A DNA stretch of 62,961 nt, taken from positions 1-62,961 of the IMG/VR virus record IMGVR_UViG_3300048592_000259. One strand, written 5' to 3'. Below the pieces are notes generated by a model. That model saw only the letters and a list, made by a program, of their open reading frames with translations. It ran no database searches and was not told the origin of the DNA. Source of the DNA: a virus. Of the stretch, positions 26,669-62,961 are shown piece after piece. Positions within the stretch are counted from its first letter, which is position 1. Each line of letters starts with the position of its first letter. Both the position numbers and the translations under genes were made by a program.

Positions 26669-27122
26669 GGGTCTGGAAGGTGCGCACCACGTCGTTCACG
26701 GCCTTGGTCAGGGCGTGCACGATTTCAAGCTCGCGGAACCGCTCGGTCGGGCCGGGGCGCTTCATCGGGACCAGCGAGTAGACCGGCGGGACGTGCCGCG
26801 GGATCTTGACCGCCCGGGCGATCACCACGATGCCGTCGTCGGTCCGGTAGTGCGTCAGGGCCGGGTCGTCCAGGGCCGGCGCCGCGCGCCGGATGACGCT
26901 CGCGCACGCCTCCAGGAAGGGCTCGGCGATCGCGTTGAAGCCCTGATGGTCCCGCGTCTGGTTGATGGCGCCCACGCCGAACATCAGGTCGTTGGTCCGG
27001 AACCGCTGGGCCGGCGACGCGCAGGTCGGTGAAGCGGCCACGCCGACCGCGTACCAGGCGGCGCATTCGATGAAGGCGCCCCGGAGGCGGAATCGGGCGA
27101 AGGCTCCCGCGTCGAGCGTCAC
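26640..27122 (-). CDS. Conserved-type hypothetical phage protein upstream of terminase, 160 aa
   Basis: Starts with GTG 27122, which shares bases with the upstream TGA (GTGA). It holds two Cys near residues 19 and 30, a mixed alpha/beta body (TNDLMFGVGAINQTRDHQGF; TDDGIVVIARAVKIPRHVPP) and a charged C-terminus. No known motif. It is translationally coupled at both ends and lies before the terminase genes, so a packaging-related or regulatory role is possible. Confidence 0.75.
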   Translation of the reverse strand: MTLDAGAFARFRLRGAFIECAAWYAVGVAASPTCASPAQRFRTNDLMFGVGAINQTRDHQGFNAIAEPFLEACASVIRRAAPALDDPALTHYRTDDGIVVIARAVKIPRHVPPVYSLVPMKRPGPTERFRELEIVHALTKAVNDVVRTFQTRAERQAQGL

Positions 27123-27514
27123 CGCTGCCCCTTCGGGGGCACCCAACGGCAGTCGGGCAGCGACAGTTCGCACGACGAGCAGCGGATGAGCCCGGACCGG
27201 TGGAGGCGGAAGTCCTTGCCGTTGCAGCGCGGGCACCCGGCGATGTCGACCTCGATCATGCCGGGGCCGACGACCTTGGCGTTGCGCATCTCGCGCTGCC
27301 GCACCTGGGCCTGGGCCGAGACGTGCGCCACCGCGGTCCGCAGCTGCCGCATGCTGAACGGGCGCACGTTGTCGATCGGGGCGGTGGGCTTCGCGGCGCC
27401 CATCGGCTCCGGGACCCCATCCGAATGGGGTTGGAATGCCTCTGGAATGGGATTCGGAAGGGATACGGCGGACGGCGGCGCGTCGCTGGTGCGGTCGCCG
27501 GGCTGGTCGGTCAT
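27119..27514 (-). CDS. Zinc-ribbon protein, 131 aa
   Basis: The C-terminal third carries CPRCNGKDFRLHRSGLIRCS plus one more Cys (C-x2-C-x16-C-x2-C), a zinc ribbon. The N-terminal part is low-complexity and Pro-rich. ATG 27514 is preceded by AGGGGG at a good distance; the frame is open for 45 more codons upstream, but that part looks non-coding. It may bind nucleic acid or act as a small transcription-related factor. The DNA of its linker contains the ATGGGG/CCCCAT motifs also found in the O-like gene. Confidence 0.75.
   Translation of the reverse strand: MTDQPGDRTSDAPPSAVSLPNPIPEAFQPHSDGVPEPMGAAKPTAPIDNVRPFSMRQLRTAVAHVSAQAQVRQREMRNAKVVGPGMIEVDIAGCPRCNGKDFRLHRSGLIRCSSCELSLPDCRWVPPKGQR
27414..27458. 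repeat. Copy of the origin-type ATGGGG/CCCCAT motif cluster
   Basis: ACCCCATCCGAATGGGGT at 27414-27431 is an inverted repeat with seven-base arms. GGAATGGGATTCGGA at 27444-27458 is identical over 15 bases to 40833-40847 inside the O-like initiator gene. It lies inside the linker part of the zinc-ribbon gene. Confidence 0.7.
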
Positions 27515-28184: not shown

Positions 28185-28233
28185 TGCCAATTGGGGTGCA
28201 ATTGACCCCCAAGCGGGGGCTCGCGCGAGGGTC

Positions 28234-28273
28234 TATCCAGACCCTATCCAGACCCTATTTAGACCCTAAATAG
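28234..28273. repeat. Three and a half 11-bp iterons
   Basis: Direct repeats TATCCAGACCC (28234-28244), TATCCAGACCC (28245-28255), TATTTAGACCC (28256-28266) and a partial TAAATAG (28267-28273), with no spacing. One 11-bp unit is about one helical turn, so a protein could bind all units on the same face. Lies in the non-coding divergent region (28202-28441). May be a replication- or transcription-control site. Confidence 0.8.
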
Positions 28274-32571: not shown

Positions 32572-33401
32572 CCGACGAGCTACGAGAAATACTCATGCAC
32601 GCGACCATCTACGACCAGATCGACGCGCTCGTGAGGGCGCTGCGAATCCAACGGCAGATTGACGAGAACGGCGTCGAGGTCGCCGTGTCGCGGGAGTCTG
32701 TCGACATGGCGATCAAGGAGCTGCTGAAGCTCCGTGCCGATCGCGACGAGGCGCGCGACGGCCGAGCCCAAAACTGGCAGAACATGTACCAGTGGATGGT
32801 CGTGGCGACGAGAATGCGCAACGAACTGAACGGCGCTCGCCTGGCCCTGAACGCGGCCGAGGCCATGCTCGCGGCGGCGGTGGACGAGCGCGACGCCGCT
32901 CGCGCGCGGGCAGAGGCGGCCGAGGCGAAGCTCAACGCGCCCGAGCTCATCGACTTCCGCGAGGCCGTCGTCGCCGAGGCCGCGCACCAGCGCGAGCGTT
33001 GGGGAACCGACCACGACGCCGGCAAGACGCCAGCCGACTGGTTCTGGCTCGTCGGCTATCTCGCGGGCAAGGCCCTCGCGGCGACGAAGGGCGAAGCTCT
33101 TCCTCGCTACCGGCACGTCAAGTACGGCACGACCTACGAAGTGATCGCGGTCGTCGAGAACGAGAACAACCGCGGGCAGAGCATCGTCGTCTATCGCGGC
33201 GAGAGCGACGGGAAGCGATGGGCTCGCCCGGCCGAGCAATTCTTCGACGGGCGCTTCGAGGAACTGCCGGCGCAGCTGCCCGACAAGCTGCTCCACCACA
33301 TCATCACGACCGCAGCCGCGTGCGCGAACTGGCATGCGCACGTCCTCGGCAAGACGAACTTGCGGCCGGGCATCGCGCCGCCGCCGGGGGAGGCGCCGTG
33401 A
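32568..33401 (+). CDS. Phage protein with a DUF1653-like domain inserted, 277 aa
   Basis: Layout: short N-terminal helices, coiled coil (residues about 90-125), then FREAVVAEAAHQRERWGTDH and DWFWLVGYLAGKALAATKGE, then a beta domain YRHVKYGTTYEVIAVVENEN, SIVVYRGESDGKRWARPAEQ, FFDGRF (DUF1653-like), then LLHHIITTAAACANWHAHVL. The parts before and after the beta domain normally form one continuous phage domain, from memory. The beta domain thus looks inserted. Starts inside the DUF5131 stop (ATGA). Confidence 0.85.
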   Translation: MTDELREILMHATIYDQIDALVRALRIQRQIDENGVEVAVSRESVDMAIKELLKLRADRDEARDGRAQNWQNMYQWMVVATRMRNELNGARLALNAAEAMLAAAVDERDAARARAEAAEAKLNAPELIDFREAVVAEAAHQRERWGTDHDAGKTPADWFWLVGYLAGKALAATKGEALPRYRHVKYGTTYEVIAVVENENNRGQSIVVYRGESDGKRWARPAEQFFDGRFEELPAQLPDKLLHHIITTAAACANWHAHVLGKTNLRPGIAPPPGEAP

Positions 33402-39337: not shown

Positions 39338-39657
39338 GGCGTCACCTGGATCAGGCCTTCGCGCCACAGGTAGAGCAGCGTGCGGTCCATCGCGCGGCGC
39401 ATCGCGTCGCGTCGCTCGTCGCGGGACATTTTCGATCCCTGGTCGATCGCGCTGTGGCACGACGAGCAGCCGATGGCGCCGAAGCAGTCGTCAGCCTTCC
39501 GGTGCGCGCCCTTGCCGTGTTCGCTCGCGTTGCTGTGGCACCAGACCGACGTGGCGTTGTCGCGGTTGCAAATGCCATCCAGCTGAATCTGGCACGGGCG
39601 ATCGCGCGCGAGGCGGCGCAATTTCTCGTTCTCGTAGCGCGTCGTCTTCGGGAACAT
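39334..39657 (-). CDS. YbcO-like nuclease (DUF1364), 107 aa
   Basis: CQIQLDGICNRDNATSVWCH, then GKGAHRKADDCFGAIGCSSC and HSAIDQGSKMSRDERRDAMR: the Cys/His pattern of the DUF1364/YbcO family of small phage nucleases of lambdoid early regions. Probably binds zinc and acts in recombination or DNA processing. ATG 39657 overlaps the upstream stop. Normal length for the family. Confidence 0.88.
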   Translation of the reverse strand: MFPKTTRYENEKLRRLARDRPCQIQLDGICNRDNATSVWCHSNASEHGKGAHRKADDCFGAIGCSSCHSAIDQGSKMSRDERRDAMRRAMDRTLLYLWREGLIQVTP

Positions 39658-40124
39658 CAGAAGCCCTCGTTGAACACGGCGTCGGACAGGCGTTGCGCTT
39701 CGGCGACCGTGAGGCCCGGCATGATGCCGGCGCACAGCACGGCGACGACGCTCTCGTAGATTTGCTCGAACTCGGCCTGGTCCATGTTGCCGAAGGCGAT
39801 GCTCTTTGCCTCCAGCCGCGCCTCGCCGTCGATGCCCAGGACGATTTCGTAGTAGCCGGCCTGGATCACCAGGTCCTTGCGGAATCGCTCGAACGACTTC
39901 ATGGCCGGCGCGCCAGCGATCGACTTCCCCTCGGGGTTCCATTGCTCGAACGCCATGTGCGCGAGCGCGAAGAACTTCCGGTGGAACTGCGGATTGCGCA
40001 TCCGCTTCACGGTCGCGAGGACCGCGCGCCCCTCTTGCAGCTTCGCGACCAGCGATTGCGAGTAGCGATCGCCGGGCGCGAGCGTGCCCTTGTCGGTCTT
40101 CACCAGCATCATCGGCTCGGACAC
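39657..40124 (-). CDS. DUF1367-like phage protein, 155 aa
   Basis: LATVKRMRNPQFHRKFFALA, then HMAFEQWNPEGKSIAGAPAM and KDLVIQAGYYEIVLGIDGEA fit the DUF1367 family, found next to NinB/YbcO-type genes in lambdoid phages. Function unknown, probably recombination- or replication-linked. The stop overlaps the nuclease gene start. Confidence 0.85.
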   Translation of the reverse strand: MSEPMMLVKTDKGTLAPGDRYSQSLVAKLQEGRAVLATVKRMRNPQFHRKFFALAHMAFEQWNPEGKSIAGAPAMKSFERFRKDLVIQAGYYEIVLGIDGEARLEAKSIAFGNMDQAEFEQIYESVVAVLCAGIMPGLTVAEAQRLSDAVFNEGF

Positions 40125-40286: not shown

Positions 40287-41309
40287 TCACCTCCCCTCTG
40301 CGGTCTTGATCCGCTCCACGAAATGCTCTTGTGACTCGCCAGGTCGCGGTGTGATTCCGAGTTCGCGTCCGCGCTTCGCCGCACCCTCTGGCGTCTTCCA
40401 CCAGGCGGGCCCGCCGCTGTCGAGAACCGGCGGTCCCTTCCCGGTCATCCATTCGGTGTGCAACTTCTCGCAGTCGGCGAGCAGCATGCCGAGCGTGTGC
40501 CCCTTCTGGACGTAGAAGCGTTCGTCGCTCGTGACGTAGTGCGCCGCCACGTCCGGCGCCGCAGCGCCCAGGCGCTTCACGAGTTGCGCGATCTGCGCGT
40601 TCACCGTCGCGTTGCGCACGGGATCGGCGCCGTACCGCTTCCGGTAGGCCGCGCTGTAGCGTTCCCATACCTCGACCGTGATCGGCACCCTGCCGGGCGC
40701 CTCGGGCGGGGGTGGGGCCTTTCGTTTCTGACCTGTCGGGCCTGTCGACGACCGCGAAGCGGCGTCGGCAGTCCGGGGTTTTACCGGTACCGGTACCTGT
40801 ACCTGTGTATCGGATGGGGTTCGGACCCCATCGGAATGGGATTCGGATGGGGTCCGTTTTTCGACCGTTCGTCGGCTGTCAAACCGGGCGATCAGGGCGT
40901 CCCGGCGCGCGGCCGGAAGGTCCCCTCCGTATTCGCGGAGCGCGTCCGCGGCGGCGCCCAGGACGGTCGCCTCATCGGGCAAGGACTCGAACGACCCGAA
41001 GATGTGGGTCGCGTACTTGGCACTGATCTTGCCGATGTGCTTGAGGGACTTGTGGATAACTACGAAGCCAGTCCCATTGCAATGGGATGCGAACCCCATT
41101 CGAGTGAGGTCCGAAAGGGATTCGGATGCCTGTTCCTGGGTGAGCCCGAGGTCGGCGACCAGGTAGGCAATCGGCAGGTGGAAGGCGCCCGCCGCGTTCC
41201 CGTGCCGGCAGGTCACCAGGTACAGGGCGACGAGCTTGGACAGGGGCGCGAGCCGGGCGATCGACGGCGAGGTCCAGAAACCGCTGGAGACGGTGGCGAA
41301 CTTCCTCAA
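40287..41309 (-). CDS. Lambda O-like replication initiator, 340 aa
   Basis: The N-terminal 110 residues look like a replisome-organiser winged helix (SSGFWTSPSIARLAPLSKLV; LVADLGLTQEQASESLSDLT; FVVIHKSLKHIGKISAKYAT). A low-complexity linker with DNA repeats follows, then a C-terminal helical domain (VWERYSAAYRKRYGADPVRN). TTG 41309 is the only start after an in-frame TAG and has GGGAGGGG just upstream. As in lambda, the protein likely binds iterons inside its own gene and recruits host helicase. No P- or DnaC-like loader is recognisable next to it. Confidence 0.83.
   Translation of the reverse strand: MRKFATVSSGFWTSPSIARLAPLSKLVALYLVTCRHGNAAGAFHLPIAYLVADLGLTQEQASESLSDLTRMGFASHCNGTGFVVIHKSLKHIGKISAKYATHIFGSFESLPDEATVLGAAADALREYGGDLPAARRDALIARFDSRRTVEKRTPSESHSDGVRTPSDTQVQVPVPVKPRTADAASRSSTGPTGQKRKAPPPPEAPGRVPITVEVWERYSAAYRKRYGADPVRNATVNAQIAQLVKRLGAAAPDVAAHYVTSDERFYVQKGHTLGMLLADCEKLHTEWMTGKGPPVLDSGGPAWWKTPEGAAKRGRELGITPRPGESQEHFVERIKTAEGR
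40814..41128. other. Predicted replication origin region inside the O-like gene
   Basis: Repeated elements: ATGGGGTTCGGACCCCAT (40814-40831, seven-base arms), GGAATGGGATTCGGA (40833-40847), a DnaA-box match TGTGGATAA (41051-41059, complement TTATCCACA), palindrome TCCCATTGCAATGGGA (41072-41087), and GGGATTCGGATG (41117-41128). The first cluster falls around codon 155 of the initiator, the same relative place as ori in lambda O. Origin function is inference. Confidence 0.6.
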
Positions 41310-41324
41310 GATCCCCTCCCGGGG

Positions 41325-41537
41325 CTACTTGCCGCGTTTCTTGGGGCGGGCCCGAGCCGGCGTCGCGAGGCGCGGCCAGAGATAGAGGACCTGGTAGACG
41401 CGCCCCTCGGGAATCGTCTCGCCCCACGACGACACGGCCTGCGCGCTCACGCCAAGACGCGCGGCGAACTTGCGCTTGGACATCTTGAGTCGACTGAGGC
41501 AGTCGGCCAGGGAGAGTGTTGGGGTTGGTTTGTCCAT
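41325..41537 (-). CDS. Cro-like repressor, 70 aa
   Basis: SLADCLSRLKMSKRKFAARL and GVSAQAVSSWGETIPEGRVY form a Cro/CI helix-turn-helix in a protein of Cro size. It is the first leftward gene next to a divergent promoter pair with two overlapping operators, so it very likely binds them. The -10 box of its promoter ends six bases before the ATG, so the mRNA may begin at the start codon. No separate CI-type repressor with a cleavable C-terminal domain was found. Confidence 0.85.
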   Translation of the reverse strand: MDKPTPTLSLADCLSRLKMSKRKFAARLGVSAQAVSSWGETIPEGRVYQVLYLWPRLATPARARPKKRGK

Positions 41538-41543
41538 GCTCGG

Positions 41544-41573
41544 ATCGTAACGGTTCGCCTCGGATGGTGTCAA
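41544..41573 (-). promoter_or_regulatory. Leftward promoter of the replication-lysis operon
   Basis: Minus strand: TTGACA (41573-41568), 18-base spacer, TACGAT (41549-41544), then CCGAGC and ATG 41537. The expected start point is at or next to the ATG (leaderless). The -35 box is inside operator O2. Confidence 0.75.
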
Positions 41574-41601
41574 CCTAGCTTGTATCAAAGTGAGTTGACA
41601 T
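41567..41601. promoter_or_regulatory. Operators O2 and O3, overlapping
   Basis: O2 is GTGTCAACCTAGCTTGTATC (41567-41586). O3 is GTATCAAAGTGAGTTGACAT (41582-41601). They share GTATC. O2 overlaps the leftward -35 box and O3 overlaps the rightward -35 box, as in a bistable or autoregulated divergent switch. Confidence 0.78.
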
Positions 41602-41624
41602 TGCATCGGCGCGAAGGATAACAT
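41595..41624 (+). promoter_or_regulatory. Rightward promoter of the recombination operon
   Basis: TTGACA (41595-41600), 18-base spacer, TAACAT (41619-41624). The first gene starts at ATG 41653. The -35 box is the right half of operator O3. Confidence 0.75.
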
Positions 41625-51745: not shown

Positions 51746-54700
51746 CTACTGCGCCAGGCGTTCGCGCAGGTCGTTGCGCATGCCGGCGGGCGCCGCCTTC
51801 ACGAAGCGTTCGCTGCGCGTGGTCTGCATTTCCTTCACGCGGCGCGCGATGTCGCTCGGGCGAATCTGGATCTTCGCTTCGGGGTTCTTCTCGTTCCAGT
51901 CGCGCAGCTGCGCGAGCGCGTCGTTCACCTTCGCCTTGTCCTTCTCGAAGATGCCGGTCGCCCAGCGGTCGGCCACTTCGCCCTGCACCGCGCGCACCAG
52001 GTTCGCGGTCTGCTGGCCTTCGCTGATGATGCGCGACTCGGCGGCCACCTTCGACGGGTTGAACCCCGTGGCGCGGGCGATCGCGTCGGTCGTGTCGGTC
52101 GCGATGACGCGCCGGCCGCGGCTGTCGAGCGCGTAGCCGCCCTGGATCATGTCGACGGCCTTCGCCGCGTCCTGGAGCGCCTTCGGCGCGAACTGGCGCG
52201 CCGCGGCGCCGAACTCGCCCGACTGCGCGCTCGTGACGGCATCCGCGACGCTGCGCGCGAGCCCGCCGGCCGGCCCCAGCACGTCCACGATGTCGCGGCC
52301 CTTGTCGACGTTCGACTTCTTCGCGAGGCCCGTGCCGGGGATCAGGTTGCCCATCCCCATGCGGCCCTGCACGTCGAGCGGGAAGCCGGGCATCGTCGAC
52401 GCGCCGTGCAGCACGAACGCGCCCAGGTCCTTCCCGAGGGTCGAGACGATGAACGCGCGCTTCTGCTCCTTCGTGTTCCAGTTGTACCCGAGGGACTGCG
52501 CGATCGTGTCGATCAGGTCGTCCAGGTCGTCCGAGAACGGGAGCCCGGAGATCCCGGACGCCAGCATCAGCAGGCCCAGCGCGTACGCGCGCTCGCGCGG
52601 GGGCAGGCGCTTCAGGAACTCCAGGTAGGCGATCGAGTACTGCTTGAACGTCATCACCGTCGCGCCGATCGGGCCGCGCGCCCAATTCGGCCGGTTCGCC
52701 TTGTTGTAGACGCCCTGCGTCTCCGCGATCGCGTTGACCGCGAAGTCGTAGGCGCTCTTGGCGCCGGCGTCGGCAAGCTGCTCGGCGTTCCAGTCCTTCG
52801 CCATCCCGAAGGCGGCGAGGAAGGTGGACCGGCGGTTGAACTGCTCGGCGACGGCGAACATCGACCCCCACACCTTGAGGCCCTTCCGGAGGTAGATGTT
52901 CGACCCGAGCCCGCGGATCGACTCGGCGTACAGCTGGTGGATTTCGTGCGGCGAGACGGTGCCCTCGCGCTCGGCGCGCGCGAGCGCCGCGGCCGTGGCG
53001 GGATCCGTCGGCCGCGTCACCGCCTCCTTCATGCCTCGCGCGAGCGCGCCCGCGGCCTTGGTCGCGCCGAACTGCGACAGGTAGGGCAGCGTCATCATGA
53101 ACGGCTGGGTCGTGTTCACGACCGCCGACGCGACCGACCCGCCGAGGTACTGGACGAACAGGAAGCCGCGCAGCGACGCCGCTTCCTCCTTCGGGTCCTG
53201 GAGGTAGGTGACGAGCTTGACCGCCTCGTCCTTCACGTCGCCCATGCGCTTCGGGATCGCCTCGACCGCATCGTTCATGTCGGCGTTGTTGAGGTTCCCC
53301 GACGCCGCGCGCGCGTTGCTCGTGATGAAGGCCGACAGCACGCGCTGGGCGTCCTGGTCGAAGCCGGCGATGCCCTGGCGTTGCAGCAGGCGCTTGAGCG
53401 CGCTGCGGTTGTTCAGGGCCATGCGGATGAACTCGTGGAACGCCTCGCGCTGGTCGGCGCCGGTCGCCTTCGCGAACAACTCCAGCGTGTCCGGCGTCAT
53501 CCCGCGGAACATCTTGTGGGCTTCCTTCGACAGCGTGCCCTGGGTGACTTGGGCGTTCGGGAACTCGGCGCGCAGCGACCGCGCCATTGCGTTCGCGTCC
53601 GCCTGGCGCTCGAACATGCCGAAGTAGACGCGGTTGTCGCCCTGCACCGCGTCGACGGTGTACTGGCCGAAGCGCATCAGCGGCGCGTAGCCCTCGCGGA
53701 TCAACTCGCGCACGCGGCCGTACCGGTTCAGGATCTCGCCGGCCGTCGCGGAAAGCTCCGCGCGCGCCGCCTCGGTCGTCGCGGCCTGCGACAGGCGGAT
53801 CAACTCGCCAGAGAGGGCCTGGGACGCGCCGTGGTGCGTCAGGAGCATGGCCTGGTCGATGAACGCCTTGTCGACCTTCCCGCGCGCCAGGCGAGCCATT
53901 TCCGACTGCGAGAGCGTTTCCAGCGACCGTTCGATCGCCGCGCGCGACTCCTGGTAGAGGCCGACCTGGCGCGGCGTCAGGTGGAAGCGATCGCGCAACT
54001 CGGCTTCGGTGTACTCGCGCTCGTCGATCAGCGTGCCGTGGAACAGCGGCACCGACACGGCGCGCACGTCCTTCGACGACGGGCCGATCTTGAGGACGCC
54101 CGAGAGCCCTTCGAGCTTCGGCAGGAGGTCCTTCGCCCGGTCGGCCGCGTCGTTCGCGATGCGCGACACGTCGTTGACGTACCGCTGCGCCTGGTCGTAG
54201 ACCCGCTTGAACTCGGGCACGACGGTCGCCTTGTGGAACTGCGTGCCGACGGTCTTGTGCCAGGGGTTGAAGACGCGCTGGGTCGTCAGGTGGTCCTGGA
54301 TGCGATCGGTGATCCTCGACACGGTGCCGCGGGACACCCCGAACGGCAGGCCGGGCTCGGCGACGATCCATTGCGGGTCAGCCTCGCCGACTTCCGGCTG
54401 GGCGGCATCGCCGGCCGTGTAGCGGCGCAGCGGTTCGGCCGCGACCGGCTTGGCCTCGTCGTCCGCTTCCTCCCCGCCCTCGGGCGCCGCGGCGGCGCCG
54501 TTGTCCTCCACCCCGATCCCGAGGGCCTTGTCGAGTTCGCGCTGGCGCTCCAGTAGCTCCTGGACCTTCGCGGCCTGCGGGTAGGGCTTCTCCGACTCGG
54601 CGCGCGCGACGGCCGCGTTGGCCGCGTTCTTCTCGGCCACGGCCGTCATCCGGGCCGCTTCCTCCGTCACGTCGCGCACCAGCCCTTCGAGGCGCTGGAT

Positions 54701-57700
54701 GTTGCCGTCGGCCGACTCGCCGGCCGTGGTCGCGTAGCTGTTCGCGCCCTGGAGCGCGAGGCGCACGGTCACATGGTCGCCGTAGCTCGCCTTCTCCTTC
54801 GTCACGGCGACCGGGAAGCCGCCCAGGTGCCCGACGACGATCGGCGGCTGGTTCATGCCGACTTCGCTGACGGCGCGCGCGAAGGCGCCCGCCGCCTCCA
54901 CGCGGTCGGCGTAGCGGCGATCGCCCACGGTCATCAGGAAGGCGTCCCCGCGCGTCGACACCACGCGGCCCGCGTCGAGCTTCGCGCGCTCGGCGTAGGC
55001 ACGCTGGTTCGTCGCGTACTGTTCGAGCTTCGTTGCCTCCAGCCGGAGCCGGTAGGCGTTCTCGTTGTGGCGGGCCTGGGACGACGTGAGGCGCGACAAC
55101 TCGCCGTCGACGTTGGCCTTTTCGAGGATGAGCGGGTTCCCCGAGGCGAACGCCTTCAACTCGGCGTAGGTCAGGGCGCGGTCGCTGACTTCCTCGATTT
55201 CGCGCACCGACGGATCCGCGCGCATCACCTGGTCGATGAAGGCCGACTTGCGCTCGACCGCCGACCACATGAAGGCGTCGAAGGACCCCTCGGTGATGTA
55301 GTGCCAGAGTTCGACTTCCTCGTTCTCGTTGCCCTGCCGCACCATGCGGCCGTTGCGCTGTTCAACGTCGGCGGGACGCCACGGCACGTCCAGATGGTGC
55401 AGGGCCTTCAGGAGGCGCTGGACGTTCGTGCCGGCGCCCATCTTGTCGGTCGAACCCAGCAGGATGCGCACGCGGCCGGCGCGCACGTCCTCGAACAGCC
55501 GATCCTTCTTGAGGTCGGTGTCCGCGTCCTGGATGAAGGCGACTTCGTTCGCCGGCACGCCCGCCTTCACGAGCTTGTCGCGGATGTCCTGGTAGACGCT
55601 GAACTTGCCCTTGTGGGGCGTCGAGAGGTCCGAGAAGATCAACTGCGACGACTTCGCCGCGCGCGTCTCGGTCCAGATCCGCAGGACGTTGGCGACCGCC
55701 TTGTTCACCTTCGACTCGGGGTCGTCCGCCGCCTTCGGGTCGACCAGGCGCATGTCGAGCGCGGCCTTGCGACCCTCGCTCGTGATCTTGAGCATGTTGT
55801 CCTGCCGCGGGTCGACCGTGCCGGTCTTGATCGCCTCGGCGCGCGCCACGAGATCCGCGACGAACGCTTCCATTTCGGCGGTCTTCGGCGAGGTCATCGA
55901 CTGCGGCTTGCCGCCGCGCAGCTTCGGCACCGGCAGCTTGAGCATGTCCGCCGTCTTCACGTCGGCGAACTCCCCGAACATCTGCGCGAGCTCGCCCACG
56001 TTGACGAACTTCGCGAACCGGGTCTTCGGAGCGTACCCGCCGCCGTCGGCGCGCATCTCGTACTGCGTGACCGCCTCGCCGAACTGAGCGGCCCAATTGT
56101 CGAATTGGTCGAGCCCCGCGGCCTGGAGGGACTTCATGCCCAGGTACCGCTGCATCGTGAACATTTCCGTCACGCTGTTCGCGATCGGGGTGCCGGTCAT
56201 GAAGACCACGGCGCCGCGGCCGTTCGCCTGGTCGTTCAACCACGCCGTCTTCAACAGCATGTCGGTCGACCGCTGCGAGTCCGCCGTGCCGATACCCGGC
56301 ATGCGGTCCATTTTCGTCTCGAAGCCGAGGTTCTTGAAGTAGTGGGCTTCGTCGACGAACAGGCGATCGACGCCGAGTTCCTCGAAGCGCACCACGTCGT
56401 CCTTCGCCGCCATCGCCAGTTGCCGGTCGAGGCGCGCCTTCAGGTCCTTCTTGCGCTTCTCCAGGCGCTTCTGGAGACGGCTGTTCTTCCCGCCGCCCTG
56501 GGTCTGAGCCTGTTCGAGGATGGCTTCCTCGACCTGCCGGATGCGCTCCTGGATGAAGTTGGCGACGTACTCGTCCGACATCGCGAGCTTCTGGAACGAC
56601 GAGTGCGTGATGACGATGCCGTCCCAATTCCCGGTCGCGATGCGCGAGGCGAGCTCCTTCCGCTTTTCGGCGACCAGATCCTCCTTGCGCGCCAGCAGCA
56701 GGTTCGCGTTCGGGTACAGCTGGAGCCATTCCCGCGAGTACTGTTCCAGCATGTGATTCGGAACGACGTGCATCGGCTTGCGCGCCGCGCCGATCCGCTT
56801 CAACTCCATGCTGCCGGCGATCGCCGTGAAGGTCTTGCCGGCGCCGACCGCGTGCGCGAGCAGGGTGTTCCCGCCCGTGACGATCCGCCACGCACCGTCC
56901 TTCACGTTCTGGCGCAGCTTGATGAGCGGGTTCGTGCCCGGCAGCGTCAGGTGCGACCCGTCGTACTTCCGCAGCTGGGTCGTGTTGAACTCGTCGTTGT
57001 AGAGGCGAGCGAGCGCGTCGCGCACGTCGTCGGTGCGCATCCACCACGCCTCGAACTCGGCGCGGATCGCGTCGATCTTCTCGGCCGCGGCCAGCGTCGC
57101 GGCGGTGTTGACCGTCGTGGTGCCGTCCGAATGGTGAATCAGGATCTTCGGCTTCTGCTGGTTCAGGGCCGACTCGAACAGCGACAGCGCGTGCAGTTCG
57201 GGCGTGCCCCATACCCCGCGCATCTGCGGCGTGTCCGTGTTCACCGAGCGCGGCGTGACGCGCCAGTCCGATGTGGTGGGCGAGAAGTGGATGTCGAAGG
57301 CGTTGCGCTGCGGGGTGCCGAACGTCTCCTGCGCGAAGCGCGCCAGCACGTCGGTCGGAATCCACCGCTGGCCCAGGCGGGCGCGGATGGCCGACGGCAC
57401 CAGGTCTTGCGGGATGACGGCGCGCAGCGCCTTGGCGTTCGCCTCGAAGGCCGGATCGGTCAGGGCGGCCGCCTCCGCTTCCCGGAGCTTCGCGCGCACG
57501 TTGCCCGACAGGTACGCCTCGGACTGCTGCCACGAACGTTCCACCGGGTCGAGGTAGATGCGCCCGTCGAGCCCGCCGATCAACTCGGCCTCGGAGAAGC
57601 CCGTCAGCCGGCTCATGTGCGCCAGGTCGACGCGCCCGAGCTCGTTCAGGGAGGCGGTCAGCGCGTCGATCGCGTTGTCGGCCGACGTGATCGGCACCGA

Positions 57701-60700
57701 CCGCTGGACCGTGCGCTGGGTGAACACGTCGGCCTTCGCCGCCGTCTTCTTCTCGGGGTTCCACTTCTCCAGGGCGAGCAGGAGCGGCGCGTCCGAGTCT
57801 TCGATGATGGTCGCGCGGTTCGCCTTCTCGTTCAGGTAGCCGTGCTTCTTGACGAAGGCGTCGTAGGCGTCGTTCAGGGCCGCGGCGGTGGCGTCGAAGC
57901 GCGCCTGGTCGTCCGTCTCGACCTGGGTGCGCAGGTGCGCGCGCGCGGCGTCGCGAATGGCGATCGCCGCCGTCACCTTCGCCGCGTCCAGGTGGCTCAT
58001 GGGCTGGAGCAGCCCGCGGCCCTTCTGGAAGACCTTGCCGTTCTTCACGACCAGCGCGCCCGGCTTGATGTCGTCCGGCGCCGGGATCGGCTCGTCGAAC
58101 ACCTTCGAGGTCGCGATCGGCTTCACCCCGTCGGCGGGGAGCTTGGCGATCGCGTCGCGGATGCTCGCCGGCAGGTCGCGGCCGTCCGACTTGAGCGCTG
58201 CGTCGCCGCGGCCGTACATCGTGCCCTCGCGCGTCATCCGCCCCATCATCATTTCGGGATGGGCGACGAAGTACTCGTTGACGCGCAGGTCGCCGTCCGC
58301 CGATTTGATCGTGTCCAGGTTCAGCCACTTCGCCTCGCCGGGCGCGGGATCCGCCTCGCGCTCGCGCTTGCGCAGGAAGATGATGTCCGTCGTGACTTCG
58401 GTGTTCGCGTTCGCCTTGAAGGCGTCGTTCGGCAGGCGGATCGCGCCCAGGAATTCGCCCTTGCGCGCGATCAGCGCGCGGGCCGCGCTGTTCATCTTGT
58501 CCATCGTGCCGTCGCTCGTGACGAACGCGACGACGCCGCCAGGGCGCACGCGGTCGAGCGCCTTGGCGAAGAAGTAGTCGTGGATGAACAGCTTGTGCTT
58601 GTTGTACTTCGGGTCGCTGACGGTGTAGTCGCCGAACGGGACGTTCGAGATTGCCACGTCGAAGAAGCCGTCCGGGAACTGCGCCTGCTCGAAGCCCTGC
58701 ACCCGCACGTCGGCGGTCTGGTACAGCTGCTTGGAGATCCGGCCGGACAGGCTGTCGAGTTCCACCCCGGCGAGCGTCGACGCGCTGCGCGCGGCGTCCG
58801 GCATCAGGCCGAAGAAGTGGCCGACGCCCATCGCGGGCTCCAGGACGCGACCGCCCTTGAAGCCCATGTGCGCGAGCGCGTCCCACATCGACGTGATGAT
58901 CTGCGGCGCGGTGTAGTGGGCGTTCGGCGTCGACCCGCGCGCGAGTTCGTATTCCTCCTTCGTCAGGAGGTCGAATAGCTCGCGGCGCTCCTTCGCCCAC
59001 TCGGGGGACTGGCCGCGTTCCATCGACATCGGGCCGTAGCCCGACCGGTTCGTCTCCTTCAGCCAGCCGTCGAAGTAGTCGTAGTGGCCGAGGTAGAAGG
59101 CGTTCTTCATGCCGCCCCACCCGACGTAGCGCGAAAGCGTCTCCTGCTCGGCCGGCGTCGCGGCGCGGCCCTCGGATTCGAGCGTCTTCAGGACGCGGAT
59201 CGCTTCGAGGTTGCCGGCGTACTTCTGCTTCAACCCGCCGGTCCCGATCGTCTCGGGCCGCGTGATGCGGAAATTTACGCCCGTGCGCGTGGGCGGCTTG
59301 TACGCGATGGGGCGTCGTACCCGTTCGCGTCCGCCTCCCTTGTCTCCGCGTCCTTGGTCAGCAGCAGGTCCGGAATCACCGCCGCTTCCGCCTCGACGAG
59401 AGCGGTCCCCGGATCCGCCCCCTTCGCGATCAGGCTGTCCATCATCGCGTCGACCGCGTTGAACGTTTCCTCGGCCTTCGCCGCCACCGTCGCGTTGAGC
59501 GTCCCGTCCGCCTGCATCTGCTCGAACGCTTCCGGGTCCGCCTCCTTGAGGCTTCGCCGCGCCATCGTTTCGTACTTCTTGGGTGCCACCTTGGCCTCCT
59601 TGCGAGAACAGGTCGTCGAACAGGTCCGCGATCGCGCCGGGCGACTCCTTCTTCGCGCGCGCGACGACGGCCTTACGCTCCGGAACCGGGTCGCCGAACA
59701 GGTCGAGCGTTTCGCGCGCGTGGTATTCGCGCGCCTCTTTGCGACCACCGAGCCGGAAGTCGTGGCGCGGGAAGATGCCGGCGGCCTGAATCGAACCCGT
59801 GATCGGGTAGGAATTCGGGTCCGCCGTCACGGGCGCATCGACGATGGCGTCGCGCAGGAATCCGTTGGACACGGCCACCGAGGCTACGCGCCCGAGATTG
59901 TTCGGAACGCCGACCGCGAAGATGCCGTTGCCGCTTCCGGACGCCCGCGCGAGGCGGGACAGCATCGCGCCGGTCCGCAGGTTCTCCTTGAATCGTTCGT
60001 GCGGGATTTCTGCGAGCAGGGTGATCTTGTTGTCGGCCCCCACGCCGATGAGCGCGATCATGCCCGGCTTCTGGATCTTCTTGCCGATCCGCGCTACGTC
60101 GTATTCGTTTTCGACGCGATCGTAGCCGAGATCCTTCGCCGGGGCGGGCGCGTTCGCCGCGAGGGTGCGGACTTCCGCCACGAACCTTTTCCGCTTCCGG
60201 TCAATCCGGATCAGCCCGAACTTGTTCGTGTCGAGGATGACGTGCCCGCCGTATAGCTTCGCGAGCGCCTTATTTCCGAGAATGTAGTCGGTCAGGTTGA
60301 CATCGGAGCTCGATGCCTCGGGGCGCCCGGACGGGTGGTTGTGCATCAGGTAGAACTTGTCCGCGTCGAGCGACTTCGCGATGTACTCCAGGCGCAGCAG
60401 GAACATCTTCGGCGAGCCGACGAACGCCGCGGTTACTGACGGCAGGCGCGAGGTCACCGCTTCCTCGTGGATGACCTTACCGCCCTTGGTGAAGACGTAG
60501 CGCATCGTCTCGTAGCGCGGGTCGCGGTAGACCTGTGCGACCGCCGCCAGGTCGGCGTAGCTCGTGACCGGCTTCCCGAGCAGCGTCGATTCCCCGTCGC
60601 GGATCATGTCGAGATTGATCGCCGCGGCGAGGACCGACACGCGGCCGGCCTGGGTGAGTTCGCGCATGGCGCCGTCGCGCGCGGCCTTCGCCTTCGCGTT

Positions 60701-62961
60701 CTCGTCGGCGCGCTTCGGCAGCGCGTCCACGGCCTTGAGCGCGGCCGTCTGCGCCGCCGCCACCAGGTCGTCGGTGCGCTTCGCCGTCTCGGCGCGCTGG
60801 GCCTTCGTCATGGACGCGCCGGGCTCGAACAGCGCCTTCTGGCCGGCCGCGGCGCCCACGTCGGCGTCGCGATCGCTGCCGGTCAGGGCGAAGCCCTTCG
60901 GGTCGGGCGCACGATCGCGCTTCGCCGCGTCGGCCTCGCGCTTGGCGGCGATCGCCGCGTCGACCTTCGCGGCCTGTTCCGTCTGCGCAACAAGCGAGAA
61001 ACCGCCGGTCGCCGCATTGTCGCTATCCCCTTGACTTGGGGGTACAATTGGGGTTGTGGACCTTCCCGATTCCTTCCCCTCCGGCGCCTCCTTCCTCGAC
61101 GTGGAAGGCGTGCCCGTGTCGCTCGGCGCGGGCGTCAAGGGGCTGTACTGCGCCGCTTGGGACGGCAAGGCGCCGCGACCCTTCCCGGTCGACTCGGCGC
61201 GGTCCAACGGCGCCCCGGTGAGCGAAGACGGCTTCCGCGCCTTGGTCGCCTCCTTCCACGCCGCGTCGTAGATCGCCTTCATCTTCGCGTTCAGGGTCGC
61301 GATGATGCGGGCCTCGAACGGTGTCGGGTCGCGCTTCTCCGCCTCCAGCTTGCGTTCCAGCTTCGCGCGGCGCTCGTACAGCGGGTGCGCGATTTTCTTG
61401 GCGCCGAGCATCGCCGGCAGGTTCACCTGCACTTCGGCGACGATGCCGCCGACGTTCACGTTGAACTTGGCGTCCCGGTAGCCGTCGACGGGATCCGCCG
61501 AATCGTCCAGGAGATTGCGCCGGCCGTTCGGCAGCACGTCGAACGCCGCGAGGATCTGTGCGACCGCCTCGCGCGCCTCGGCCGGCGTGTCGGCGACGAT
61601 CGTGCCGCGCAGCACGTCCTTGATCCTGGCCGCGTCGCCCGCGTAGTCGGCCTGGATCTTCTCGACGGCGCGCGCGGTGCCCTTGAGCGGCGCCAGCTTG
61701 GCCTTGCCGCCGATCGCCGCGGCGATCGTCTCCAGGGCGGCGTCGAAGTCGGGCTTCGCCGCCTCGGCCGCGGAGTAGATCATGGACAGCGTTTCCCGCG
61801 CGTCGGGCGGGAGCTTCTCGGCGTGCGCATCGCCCTTGAGCGGGTCGTCCAGGATGTCGACCTGCTTCTCGTCGAACACCTTGAACTCGACCGCCTCGGA
61901 CGTGTCGCCGTTGCTCGCGTGGATCGCGCCGTCGAAGCCCGCGGCCTTGAGCTTCGCGACTTCGGCGGGGTCGTCGAGGAACTGGTAGGCGTCGAAGTAG
62001 AGGTCGCCCAGCTTCGATGGGTCGCGCTTGAGAAGGTCCGCGACGTTCGAGTACTCGGCCGAGAAGCCCTCGTCCCAATTGTTCGTGCCTTCGATCGCGT
62101 GGGCGAACTTGAGCGCGATGCGCTTCGCCTCTGCCGCGCCGAGCTCGCGCTGGATCGCGTCGAGCCCGATGAACGGGTCGTCCGGCTGGTCGATGAACGG
62201 GTTGTCGAGCGTCAGGCGCGCGCGCAGGACGCGCGGGTCGACGGCGTACTTGTCTTGAATCCGGTCGTTCGGCTCGTCGGCGTAGGTCTGCGCGGCCTCG
62301 CGCTTGTCGACGAACGTGATGGACGGGTTGCGCGTCTGGACCTTGCGGCCGTCGCGCTTGCCGTGTTCGCCGCGGTAGACGACCGCGGGCAGCTTGGAAC
62401 GCTTCAGCCCTTGGGCGGGCTTGGCCGCTTGAGCGGCGGTTCCTTGCTGTTGATCCGGTTCCCCGCGGCGACGATCAGGTGCGTCAGGCTCTCGACCTGC
62501 GCCGTCCTCGCCTCGTTGCGGGGCTGCGCGGCTGGGGCCATTTTCGGCGGCGATCCGGGGTGCTTCGCTGCCATACGAGTCCTCCAGGAACCGGTTGACG
62601 CGGGCCGTCAGGTCCGCGGTCGTGGCCGGCGCGCGCCCGAACATATCGCCCGAGGTCGCCGCCTGCTTCTCATCGTACAGGAAGCGCGCGGCCTCGGAAA
62701 AGCCCGCCGCCAGGCGCTTCGGCGACCGCGTGTTCTGGAGCATCAGCCCCGTCATCGCGACCGTCATCGGGTCGCGGCCCAGGAGATCCGGCTGGCGCAG
62801 CACTTCCTCGCCCTTGAGCCCCCGCGACTTCGCCTCGCGGACGATCTGCGCGGCCTCGATCATCGCCGGCCGGATGTCGAGTTCGCCACCGAAGTCCACC
62901 TTCGCCCACGCGGGCGCGGCGGCGGTGAAGGCGTGCAGGATGTTCTTGATGTCCGAGTCGT
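51746..62961 (-). CDS. Giant polyvalent virion protein, C-terminal part (ART-, RelA-like, JAB, MTase, SNF2 helicase, PLxRFG)
   Basis: This continues the gene that starts at 2396; bases 62835-62961 repeat 1-127. Approximate domains in whole-protein numbering: ADP-ribosyltransferase-like module 945-1130 (VVYRG; ITF; AVEFKVFDEKQVDIL); RelA/SpoT-like module 1145-1340 (IKDVLRGTIV; GYRDAKFNVNV; AEVQVNLP); JAB/RadC metalloprotease fold near 1630 (HNHPSG, then SSSDV); DarB-type DNA methyltransferase 2000-2300 (YVGWGG; LEPAMGVGHFFG; NVPFG); SNF2-type helicase 2750-3330 (Walker A AVGAGKT; DEAHY; MTGTPIANS; RNGRMVRQG); and a PLxRFG domain (PLMRFGQY) near 3850, followed by an Ala-rich helical tail. Related DarB-like proteins protect injected DNA from restriction. 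It is probably a virion protein ejected into the host. The domain names are recognition by motif only. Confidence 0.93.
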   Translation of the reverse strand, partial: DSDIKNILHAFTAAAPAWAKVDFGGELDIRPAMIEAAQIVREAKSRGLKGEEVLRQPDLLGRDPMTVAMTGLMLQNTRSPKRLAAGFSEAARFLYDEKQAATSGDMFGRAPATTADLTARVNRFLEDSYGSEAPRIAAENGPSRAAPQRGEDGAGREPDAPDRRRGEPDQQQGTAAQAAKPAQGLKRSKLPAVVYRGEHGKRDGRKVQTRNPSITFVDKREAAQTYADEPNDRIQDKYAVDPRVLRARLTLDNPFIDQPDDPFIGLDAIQRELGAAEAKRIALKFAHAIEGTNNWDEGFSAEYSNVADLLKRDPSKLGDLYFDAYQFLDDPAEVAKLKAAGFDGAIHASNGDTSEAVEFKVFDEKQVDILDDPLKGDAHAEKLPPDARETLSMIYSAAEAAKPDFDAALETIAAAIGGKAKLAPLKGTARAVEKIQADYAGDAARIKDVLRGTIVADTPAEAREAVAQILAAFDVLPNGRRNLLDDSADPVDGYRDAKFNVNVGGIVAEVQVNLPAMLGAKKIAHPLYERRAKLERKLEAEKRDPTPFEARIIATLNAKMKAIYDAAWKEATKARKPSSLTGAPLDRAESTGKGRGALPSQAAQYSPLTPAPSDTGTPSTSRKEAPEGKESGRSTTPIVPPSQGDSDNAATGGFSLVAQTEQAAKVDAAIAAKREADAAKRDRAPDPKGFALTGSDRDADVGAAAGQKALFEPGASMTKAQRAETAKRTDDLVAAAQTAALKAVDALPKRADENAKAKAARDGAMRELTQAGRVSVLAAAINLDMIRDGESTLLGKPVTSYADLAAVAQVYRDPRYETMRYVFTKGGKVIHEEAVTSRLPSVTAAFVGSPKMFLLRLEYIAKSLDADKFYLMHNHPSGRPEASSSDVNLTDYILGNKALAKLYGGHVILDTNKFGLIRIDRKRKRFVAEVRTLAANAPAPAKDLGYDRVENEYDVARIGKKIQKPGMIALIGVGADNKITLLAEIPHERFKENLRTGAMLSRLARASGSGNGIFAVGVPNNLGRVASVAVSNGFLRDAIVDAPVTADPNSYPITGSIQAAGIFPRHDFRLGGRKEAREYHARETLDLFGDPVPERKAVVARAKKESPGAIADLFDDLFSQGGQGGTQEVRNDGAAKPQGGGPGSVRADAGGRDAQRDGGGEGRGNVQRGRRDDGQPDREGGGSGDRSRRGGSGGDSGPAADQGRGDKGGGRERVRRPIAYKPPTRTGVNFRITRPETIGTGGLKQKYAGNLEAIRVLKTLESEGRAATPAEQETLSRYVGWGGMKNAFYLGHYDYFDGWLKETNRSGYGPMSMERGQSPEWAKERRELFDLLTKEEYELARGSTPNAHYTAPQIITSMWDALAHMGFKGGRVLEPAMGVGHFFGLMPDAARSASTLAGVELDSLSGRISKQLYQTADVRVQGFEQAQFPDGFFDVAISNVPFGDYTVSDPKYNKHKLFIHDYFFAKALDRVRPGGVVAFVTSDGTMDKMNSAARALIARKGEFLGAIRLPNDAFKANANTEVTTDIIFLRKREREADPAPGEAKWLNLDTIKSADGDLRVNEYFVAHPEMMMGRMTREGTMYGRGDAALKSDGRDLPASIRDAIAKLPADGVKPIATSKVFDEPIPAPDDIKPGALVVKNGKVFQKGRGLLQPMSHLDAAKVTAAIAIRDAARAHLRTQVETDDQARFDATAAALNDAYDAFVKKHGYLNEKANRATIIEDSDAPLLLALEKWNPEKKTAAKADVFTQRTVQRSVPITSADNAIDALTASLNELGRVDLAHMSRLTGFSEAELIGGLDGRIYLDPVERSWQQSEAYLSGNVRAKLREAEAAALTDPAFEANAKALRAVIPQDLVPSAIRARLGQRWIPTDVLARFAQETFGTPQRNAFDIHFSPTTSDWRVTPRSVNTDTPQMRGVWGTPELHALSLFESALNQQKPKILIHHSDGTTTVNTAATLAAAEKIDAIRAEFEAWWMRTDDVRDALARLYNDEFNTTQLRKYDGSHLTLPGTNPLIKLRQNVKDGAWRIVTGGNTLLAHAVGAGKTFTAIAGSMELKRIGAARKPMHVVPNHMLEQYSREWLQLYPNANLLLARKEDLVAEKRKELASRIATGNWDGIVITHSSFQKLAMSDEYVANFIQERIRQVEEAILEQAQTQGGGKNSRLQKRLEKRKKDLKARLDRQLAMAAKDDVVRFEELGVDRLFVDEAHYFKNLGFETKMDRMPGIGTADSQRSTDMLLKTAWLNDQANGRGAVVFMTGTPIANSVTEMFTMQRYLGMKSLQAAGLDQFDNWAAQFGEAVTQYEMRADGGGYAPKTRFAKFVNVGELAQMFGEFADVKTADMLKLPVPKLRGGKPQSMTSPKTAEMEAFVADLVARAEAIKTGTVDPRQDNMLKITSEGRKAALDMRLVDPKAADDPESKVNKAVANVLRIWTETRAAKSSQLIFSDLSTPHKGKFSVYQDIRDKLVKAGVPANEVAFIQDADTDLKKDRLFEDVRAGRVRILLGSTDKMGAGTNVQRLLKALHHLDVPWRPADVEQRNGRMVRQGNENEEVELWHYITEGSFDAFMWSAVERKSAFIDQVMRADPSVREIEEVSDRALTYAELKAFASGNPLILEKANVDGELSRLTSSQARHNENAYRLRLEATKLEQYATNQRAYAERAKLDAGRVVSTRGDAFLMTVGDRRYADRVEAAGAFARAVSEVGMNQPPIVVGHLGGFPVAVTKEKASYGDHVTVRLALQGANSYATTAGESADGNIQRLEGLVRDVTEEAARMTAVAEKNAANAAVARAESEKPYPQAAKVQELLERQRELDKALGIGVEDNGAAAAPEGGEEADDEAKPVAAEPLRRYTAGDAAQPEVGEADPQWIVAEPGLPFGVSRGTVSRITDRIQDHLTTQRVFNPWHKTVGTQFHKATVVPEFKRVYDQAQRYVNDVSRIANDAADRAKDLLPKLEGLSGVLKIGPSSKDVRAVSVPLFHGTLIDEREYTEAELRDRFHLTPRQVGLYQESRAAIERSLETLSQSEMARLARGKVDKAFIDQAMLLTHHGASQALSGELIRLSQAATTEAARAELSATAGEILNRYGRVRELIREGYAPLMRFGQYTVDAVQGDNRVYFGMFERQADANAMARSLRAEFPNAQVTQGTLSKEAHKMFRGMTPDTLELFAKATGADQREAFHEFIRMALNNRSALKRLLQRQGIAGFDQDAQRVLSAFITSNARAASGNLNNADMNDAVEAIPKRMGDVKDEAVKLVTYLQDPKEEAASLRGFLFVQYLGGSVASAVVNTTQPFMMTLPYLSQFGATKAAGALARGMKEAVTRPTDPATAAALARAEREGTVSPHEIHQLYAESIRGLGSNIYLRKGLKVWGSMFAVAEQFNRRSTFLAAFGMAKDWNAEQLADAGAKSAYDFAVNAIAETQGVYNKANRPNWARGPIGATVMTFKQYSIAYLEFLKRLPPRERAYALGLLMLASGISGLPFSDDLDDLIDTIAQSLGYNWNTKEQKRAFIVSTLGKDLGAFVLHGASTMPGFPLDVQGRMGMGNLIPGTGLAKKSNVDKGRDIVDVLGPAGGLARSVADAVTSAQSGEFGAAARQFAPKALQDAAKAVDMIQGGYALDSRGRRVIATDTTDAIARATGFNPSKVAAESRIISEGQQTANLVRAVQGEVADRWATGIFEKDKAKVNDALAQLRDWNEKNPEAKIQIRPSDIARRVKEMQTTRSERFVKAAPAGMRNDLRERLAQ
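62835..62961. repeat. Terminal direct repeat, right copy
   Basis: Exact second copy of bases 1-127. Removing one copy gives a 62,834-bp circle and joins the two parts of the giant minus-strand gene in the same reading frame. Confidence 0.95.

What the first reader, a model, noticed from the sequence alone, without database searches (positions are those of the whole stretch)
40814..41128. Lambda-like origin inside the O-like gene, with a matching motif copy 13 kb away
The initiator gene contains inverted ATGGGG/CCCCAT elements around codon 155 and a perfect DnaA-box match (TTATCCACA on the complementary strand) plus a 16-base palindrome further upstream. The 15-mer GGAATGGGATTCGGA is shared exactly with 27444-27458 in the zinc-ribbon gene, next to another ATGGGG/CCCCAT hairpin. 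The initiator may bind both places, linking the origin to the late operon.
Basis: partly seen in the sequence, partly recalled or inferred. Interest (0 to 1): 0.6.

Follow-up and report, generated by a model that had tools for sequence, protein, structure and literature searches.

The report
Phage replication origin inside initiator gene
A phage gene for the protein that starts DNA copying also contains, within its own coding sequence, two evenly spaced arrays of what look like that protein's binding sites, and a third matching array lies 13,000 bases away; dozens of related phages share the in-gene layout, so this is very probably a replication origin hidden inside a gene.

Summary
The ATGGGG/CCCCAT elements are parts of an 11-bp unit (GAATGGGRTTC) repeated in exact 11-bp register in three arrays. 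Array A (40812-40855) and array B (41069-41123) lie inside the O/DnaD-like initiator gene (40287-41309, minus strand). Array C (27412-27466) lies 13.4 kb away. A matrix built from A and B alone picks out C as the only array outside the gene (62.9 bits; next best -1.5; maximum of 200 shuffles 13.8). The shared 15-mer is read in different frames in the two proteins, so shared peptide does not explain it. In relatives of the N-terminal domain (84 distinct genes with the window) the gene carries GAANGGGNTTC-type arrays at the same two places, with synonymous-codon excess in most of the 16 tested. A 6-bp tandem repeat follows at near-fixed spacing and is read in different frames, so its DNA is conserved. 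Best reading: a bipartite in-gene origin bound by its own initiator. Array C lacks the 6-bp repeat; I read it as an auxiliary initiator site, most like SPP1 oriR. The perfect DnaA box is probably incidental. Binding and origin activity are untested.

The parts
40287..41309 (-). Replication initiator gene (340 aa, TTG start): DnaD-like winged-helix N-terminal domain, disordered linker ~152-205, helical C-terminal domain 210-291
   Evidence: phrog_1701 E=1e-16 at residues 2-117, phrog_11527 E=6e-20 at 210-291, phrog_391 O-like E=0.003; start aligned with M1 of relatives; AlphaFold model
41069..41123 (.). Array B: five 11-bp units at 41069, 41080, 41091, 41102, 41113 (includes the 16-bp palindrome 41072-41087); encodes the recognition helix and wing
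   Evidence: same position as set 1 in relatives
40812..40855 (.). Array A: four 11-bp units at 40812, 40823, 40834, 40845; encodes the start of the disordered linker
   Evidence: same position as set 2 in relatives
40782..40806 (-). 6-bp tandem repeat ACAGGTACAGGTACCGGTACCGGTA (QVQVPVPV) directly after array A; candidate unwinding element, degenerate relative to the family's CAGGAA-type repeat
27412..27466 (.). Array C: five 11-bp units at 27412, 27423, 27434, 27445, 27456, in the 5' part of a zinc-ribbon ORF; no adjacent 6-bp repeat
   Evidence: 62.9 bits, shuffle maximum 13.8; next array outside the gene -1.5
27119..27514 (-). Small zinc-ribbon ORF that hosts array C; no relatives found in phage records or Pfam
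41051..41059 (-). Perfect DnaA-box match TTATCCACA on VIHK codons; probably incidental
41325..41537 (-). Cro-like regulator just upstream of the initiator
   Evidence: Pfam P22_Cro E=4e-8
39657..40124 (-). NinB/Orf recombination mediator, next recognised gene downstream (lambdoid order Cro-O-NinB)
   Evidence: phrog_319 E=9e-41

Best explanation
The initiator gene contains its own replication origin. The winged-helix N-terminal domain binds 11-bp units lying one helical turn apart on one face of the DNA, in two arrays (A and B) about 215 bp apart inside the gene. The linker-coding DNA next to array A carries a short tandem repeat that is the likely place of strand opening and helicase loading. 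Array C, 13.4 kb away near the packaging genes, binds the same protein but lacks that repeat; it most likely acts as an auxiliary site (fork-stalling or mode-switching like SPP1 oriR, or titrating/handcuffing like extra iteron clusters of plasmids). Shown: the arrays, their phasing, their uniqueness in the window, the conserved in-gene positions in relatives, and selection on DNA rather than peptide. Inferred: binding by this initiator, origin activity, the opening site, and any function of C.
For: Three arrays in exact 11-bp register; C recovered by a matrix from A and B only; family-derived motif gives runs only in A, B and C. Units are read in all frames (11 is not a multiple of 3). Self-similarity exceeds synonymous shuffles: window z=5.4, most of 16 family genes z=2 to 13, one 0.5. 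Relatives carry arrays at nt ~165-235 and ~385-450 followed by a 6-bp repeat, usually 14 nt after the last core or one turn further (25); window 16. That repeat is read in frame 0 in 64 genes, in frame 1 in 10-13, and lies on the other strand in 3, with frames scattered on the tree. In three complete relative genomes the own-unit arrays lie in or just upstream of the initiator gene. Proteins sharing only the C-terminal domain also have repeats in the linker. Experimentally known parallels: lambdoid O genes (PMC7466680), SPP1 gene 38 (PMC6316719), pSK41 rep (PMC5703833).
Against: No binding or replication-start data. The window gene is a divergent member (long branch), and its 6-bp repeat is degenerate: A in the middle of 2 of 8 trinucleotides, against 98% in the family. 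Cumulative GC skew shows no turn at 41 kb. No helicase loader was recognised in the scanned genes. No relative was found with an array like C, and no close relative of this phage was found in which to test its conservation.
Confidence: 0.82

Rival explanations
1. The arrays are operators: the initiator, or the Cro-like or another regulator, binds A, B and C to control transcription, not to start replication.
For: Array C lies among packaging genes; A785.1 has one array just upstream of its initiator gene, where an operator would lie; by eye, a weak single unit overlaps the promoter-like site at 41573-41544.
Against: A and B lie deep inside the gene, far from a promoter; the conserved pairing of in-gene arrays with a tandem repeat at fixed spacing is origin-like; no array lies in the Cro/exonuclease intergenic region.
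Confidence: 0.12
2. Array C is a second complete origin used alternately with the in-gene one.
For: Five units, the same number as B, and locally low duplex stability (0.5th percentile); SPP1 has two origins about 13 kb apart (PMC6316719).
Against: No 6-bp tandem repeat next to C (sequence), whereas relatives have one beside the array.
Confidence: 0.15
3. The similarity comes from a shared low-complexity peptide (SHSDGV) or codon bias, without DNA function.
For: HSDGV occurs in both proteins in the same frame.
Against: The 15-mer is read as SESHS in one and PNPIP in the other; exact 11-bp register; excess over synonymous shuffles; matrix test.
Confidence: 0.02

Closest known systems
Lambdoid phage ori within gene O (lambda, Stx phages)
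   Same: Initiator binding sites in the middle of the initiator gene beside an opening region; Cro-O-nin gene order
   Different: Lambda has four (Stx six) iterons in one block next to an AT-rich tract; here 11-bp units in two in-gene arrays, a 6-bp repeat, a third distant array, and no Phage_rep_O Pfam match
SPP1 oriL (in gene 38) and oriR (~13 kb away)
   Same: Initiator sites inside the initiator gene plus a second site about 13 kb away among late genes
   Different: oriR has its own AT-rich unwinding element; array C has no 6-bp repeat. No sequence relation was shown
pSK41-type RepA_N plasmid origin
   Same: Origin centrally within rep, encoding a linker between a winged-helix N-domain and a C-domain; the model's N-domain matches 4pt7/4pql, which I recall as the RepA N-domain (Foldseek probability 0.98-0.99, but E about 0.4-0.6)
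   Different: Four Rep boxes within rep; plasmid; the relation rests on a weak fold match only
DnaA-trio of bacterial origins
   Same: In the relatives, A recurs every third base in a repeat at fixed distance from the initiator sites
   Different: Initiator is not DnaA; the window's own repeat does not keep the pattern

Membership tests
DnaD-like phage initiators (phrog_1701 N-domain) with in-gene arrays, as seen here | Homologous N-terminal domain | tested here: met
   E=1e-16 over residues 2-117; alignment
DnaD-like phage initiators (phrog_1701 N-domain) with in-gene arrays, as seen here | Two arrays of 11-bp GAAN(GGG/CCC)NTTC units at about codons 57-78 and 130-165 | tested here: met
DnaD-like phage initiators (phrog_1701 N-domain) with in-gene arrays, as seen here | 6-bp tandem repeat 14 (or 25) nt after the last unit, with A at every third base | tested here: inconclusive
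   Repeat present at 16 nt, but A-every-third not kept
Lambda O / ori lambda | Phage_rep_O N-terminal domain | tested here: not met
   No Pfam match at E 0.1
Lambda O / ori lambda | Single block of iterons beside an AT-rich tract | tested here: not met
   11-bp units in two blocks; opening region only modestly AT-rich
SPP1-type two-origin system | Second initiator site far from the first | tested here: met
   Array C as a sequence match; binding not tested
SPP1-type two-origin system | Unwinding element at the second site | tested here: inconclusive
   No 6-bp repeat; low duplex stability at 0.5th percentile
RepA_N (pSK41) initiators | RepA_N-type winged helix and DnaD-like C-domain | tested here: inconclusive
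   Foldseek hit to 4pt7/4pql with high probability but weak E-value; no Pfam match
DnaA-trio element | Repeated trinucleotides with A in the middle | tested here: not met
   2 of 8 trinucleotides in the window's repeat; met in the relatives (98.1% of 910)
All origin families above | Initiator binds the arrays and replication starts there | not testable with these tools
   needs gel shift/footprint and origin mapping

The most novel reading that the evidence does not exclude
A widespread phage initiator family carries a three-part origin written into its own gene (two helically phased arrays plus an A-every-third-base repeat resembling DnaA-trios, conserved as DNA across reading frames), and this phage has added a remote third array through which the same initiator controls forks or the switch to concatemer replication near the packaging genes.
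Probability: 0.35. Interest if true: 0.78.

Novelty: new variant of a known kind. Interest (0 to 1): 0.62.

Why it matters
It predicts origins from sequence for a common but barely characterised phage initiator family, and suggests that their QEQEQE-type linkers are a by-product of an origin element in the DNA. If the element works like a DnaA-trio, a non-DnaA initiator would have arrived at a similar strand-opening code. The remote array gives a specific test of how one initiator might act at two places on a phage genome.

Tried and rejected
Shared-peptide origin of the 15-mer: rejected (different frames; synonymous shuffles). DnaA box as a family feature: rejected (3 of 84 genes). The bare 15-mer as evidence: not significant alone. 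GC skew for origin position: uninformative. A first synonymous-shuffle test with the loose family motif was weak (for the window 11 of 1000 shuffles reached the observed number of units in runs, other genes mixed; the script stopped early), so I used gene self-similarity instead. Close relatives of the window by initiator, TerL or portal: none close, so conservation of array C could not be tested; the one TerL relative L008 has no array. Far arrays in 32 relative records by pattern and in three complete relative genomes by own unit: none like C. The related-looking 11-bp repeat at 28233 is not the same unit (score -1.0). Literature searches found no description of these QEQEQ-type repeats as origin parts, but the library is open-access only.

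Full report
Setting. The window is a single virus record of 62,961 bases whose first 127 bases repeat at its end, so it is probably a complete, circularly assembled tailed-phage genome. Gene content includes a major head protein, portal, terminase subunits, endolysin, NinB, exonuclease and SSB; the SSB's nearest phage DNA matches are Burkholderia and Pseudomonas phages. The order Cro-like gene (P22_Cro), initiator, NinB is lambdoid.

Checking the observation. The 15-mer identity alone is weak, because many 15-mers repeat in this GC-rich genome. What matters is the arrangement. The elements are parts of an 11-bp unit, consensus GAATGGGRTTC in either orientation, placed in exact 11-bp register: A at 40812, 40823, 40834, 40845; B at 41069, 41080, 41091, 41102, 41113; C at 27412, 27423, 27434, 27445, 27456. 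The middle unit of C (27434) is weak. A matrix trained only on A and B finds C as the single outstanding array elsewhere: 62.9 bits for five phased units, next best -1.5, maximum over 200 dinucleotide shuffles 13.8. With a motif derived from other phages and two mismatches allowed, the only four phased runs in the window fall in A, B and C; shuffles average 0.55 such runs with a maximum of 3.

Protein or DNA? The shared 15-mer is read as SESHS in the initiator and as PNPIP in the zinc-ribbon ORF; only HSDGV is in the same frame. Because 11 is not a multiple of three, successive units are read in different frames. Self-similarity of the array-bearing part of the window gene exceeds synonymous-codon shuffles (68 against a mean of 25.5, maximum 49 of 120; z=5.4). 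Of 16 family genes tested including the window, thirteen have z above 3, two about 2, and one shows no excess (L023, 0.5).

The initiator. PHROG matches give a DnaD-like N-terminal region and a C-terminal region shared with O-like proteins; Pfam gives nothing. AlphaFold (mean pLDDT 79, pTM 0.44) shows a winged helix, a disordered linker around 152-205 and a helical C-domain. Array B encodes the putative recognition helix and wing; array A and the 6-bp repeat encode the linker. Foldseek against PDB gave no match under E 0.001; high-probability hits include 4pt7 ('Structure of initiator') and 4pql, which from memory are the N-domain of a staphylococcal plasmid RepA.

The family. Relatives of the N-domain from isolated phages and viral contigs (84 distinct genes counting the window) carry arrays of GAAAGGGTTTC or GAAGGGGCTTC units at the same two places. 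Directly after the second comes a 6-bp tandem repeat, most often CAGGAA read as QEQEQE. Its start usually lies 14 nt after the last core (50 genes), or 25 nt, one 11-bp turn further (6 genes); the window has 16. The same repeat is read as GTGTGT, VAVAVA, VTVTVA, SESESE or SGSGSG in other genes, and lies on the opposite strand (PAPAPA, PIPIPI) in three. In the CAG register 98.1% of 910 trinucleotides have A in the middle. Frame changes are scattered over a weakly resolved tree; starred branches force at least three. This is strong evidence that the DNA repeat is selected. The resemblance to DnaA-trios (described in PMC10797057) is my inference. The window's copy, CAGGTACAGGTACCGGTACCGGTA, has the position and period but not the A-every-third pattern.

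Array C. In three complete relative genomes, own-unit arrays (two mismatches) occur only in the initiator gene or, in A785.1, 39 bp upstream of it; a pattern scan of 32 records found no convincing distant array (a few out-of-gene hits are unlike the phage's own unit). C is therefore a peculiarity of this phage as far as I could see. It lacks the 6-bp repeat. SPP1 offers the nearest precedent: oriL within gene 38 and oriR about 13 kb away in the late region, where a fork stalled at initiator-bound oriR is proposed to trigger the switch to concatemer synthesis (PMC6316719). The equal distance may be coincidence.

The DnaA box. TTATCCACA falls on VIHK codons and a DnaA-box-like sequence occurs in 3 of 84 family genes, twice at this same position. 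I treat it as incidental.

Limits. No binding, origin mapping or transcription data exist here. The novelty judgement rests on open-access papers only. Functional naming of C is the weakest step.

Noticed in passing
28233-28268: 11-bp tandem CTATCCAGACC x3.3 in an intergenic region, with dyads GGGTCT-ATCC-AGACCC and CTATTTAG-ACC-CTAAATAG; the least stable 40-bp stretch of the window. Probably an operator array for another regulator; not the initiator unit.
   Followed up: partly
41544-41624: Two back-to-back sigma70-like promoters between the Cro-like gene and the exonuclease operon.
   Followed up: no
1-127 and 62835-62961: Exact 127-bp terminal direct repeat, probably assembly overlap of a circular or terminally redundant genome.
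   Followed up: no
51746-62899: A single 3717-aa ORF on the minus strand taking up about 18% of the genome.
   Followed up: no
L037, L041, L073 (initiator genes with another N-terminal domain): These O-like genes carry short TGATTC-type tandem repeats of 7-8 bp in the linker, read in shifting frames; possibly a different in-gene origin type with the same C-domain.
   Followed up: no
L019:1962-1983 (A785.1 record 32804-32825): An extra pair of 11-bp units just upstream of the initiator gene start, possibly autoregulatory.
   Followed up: no
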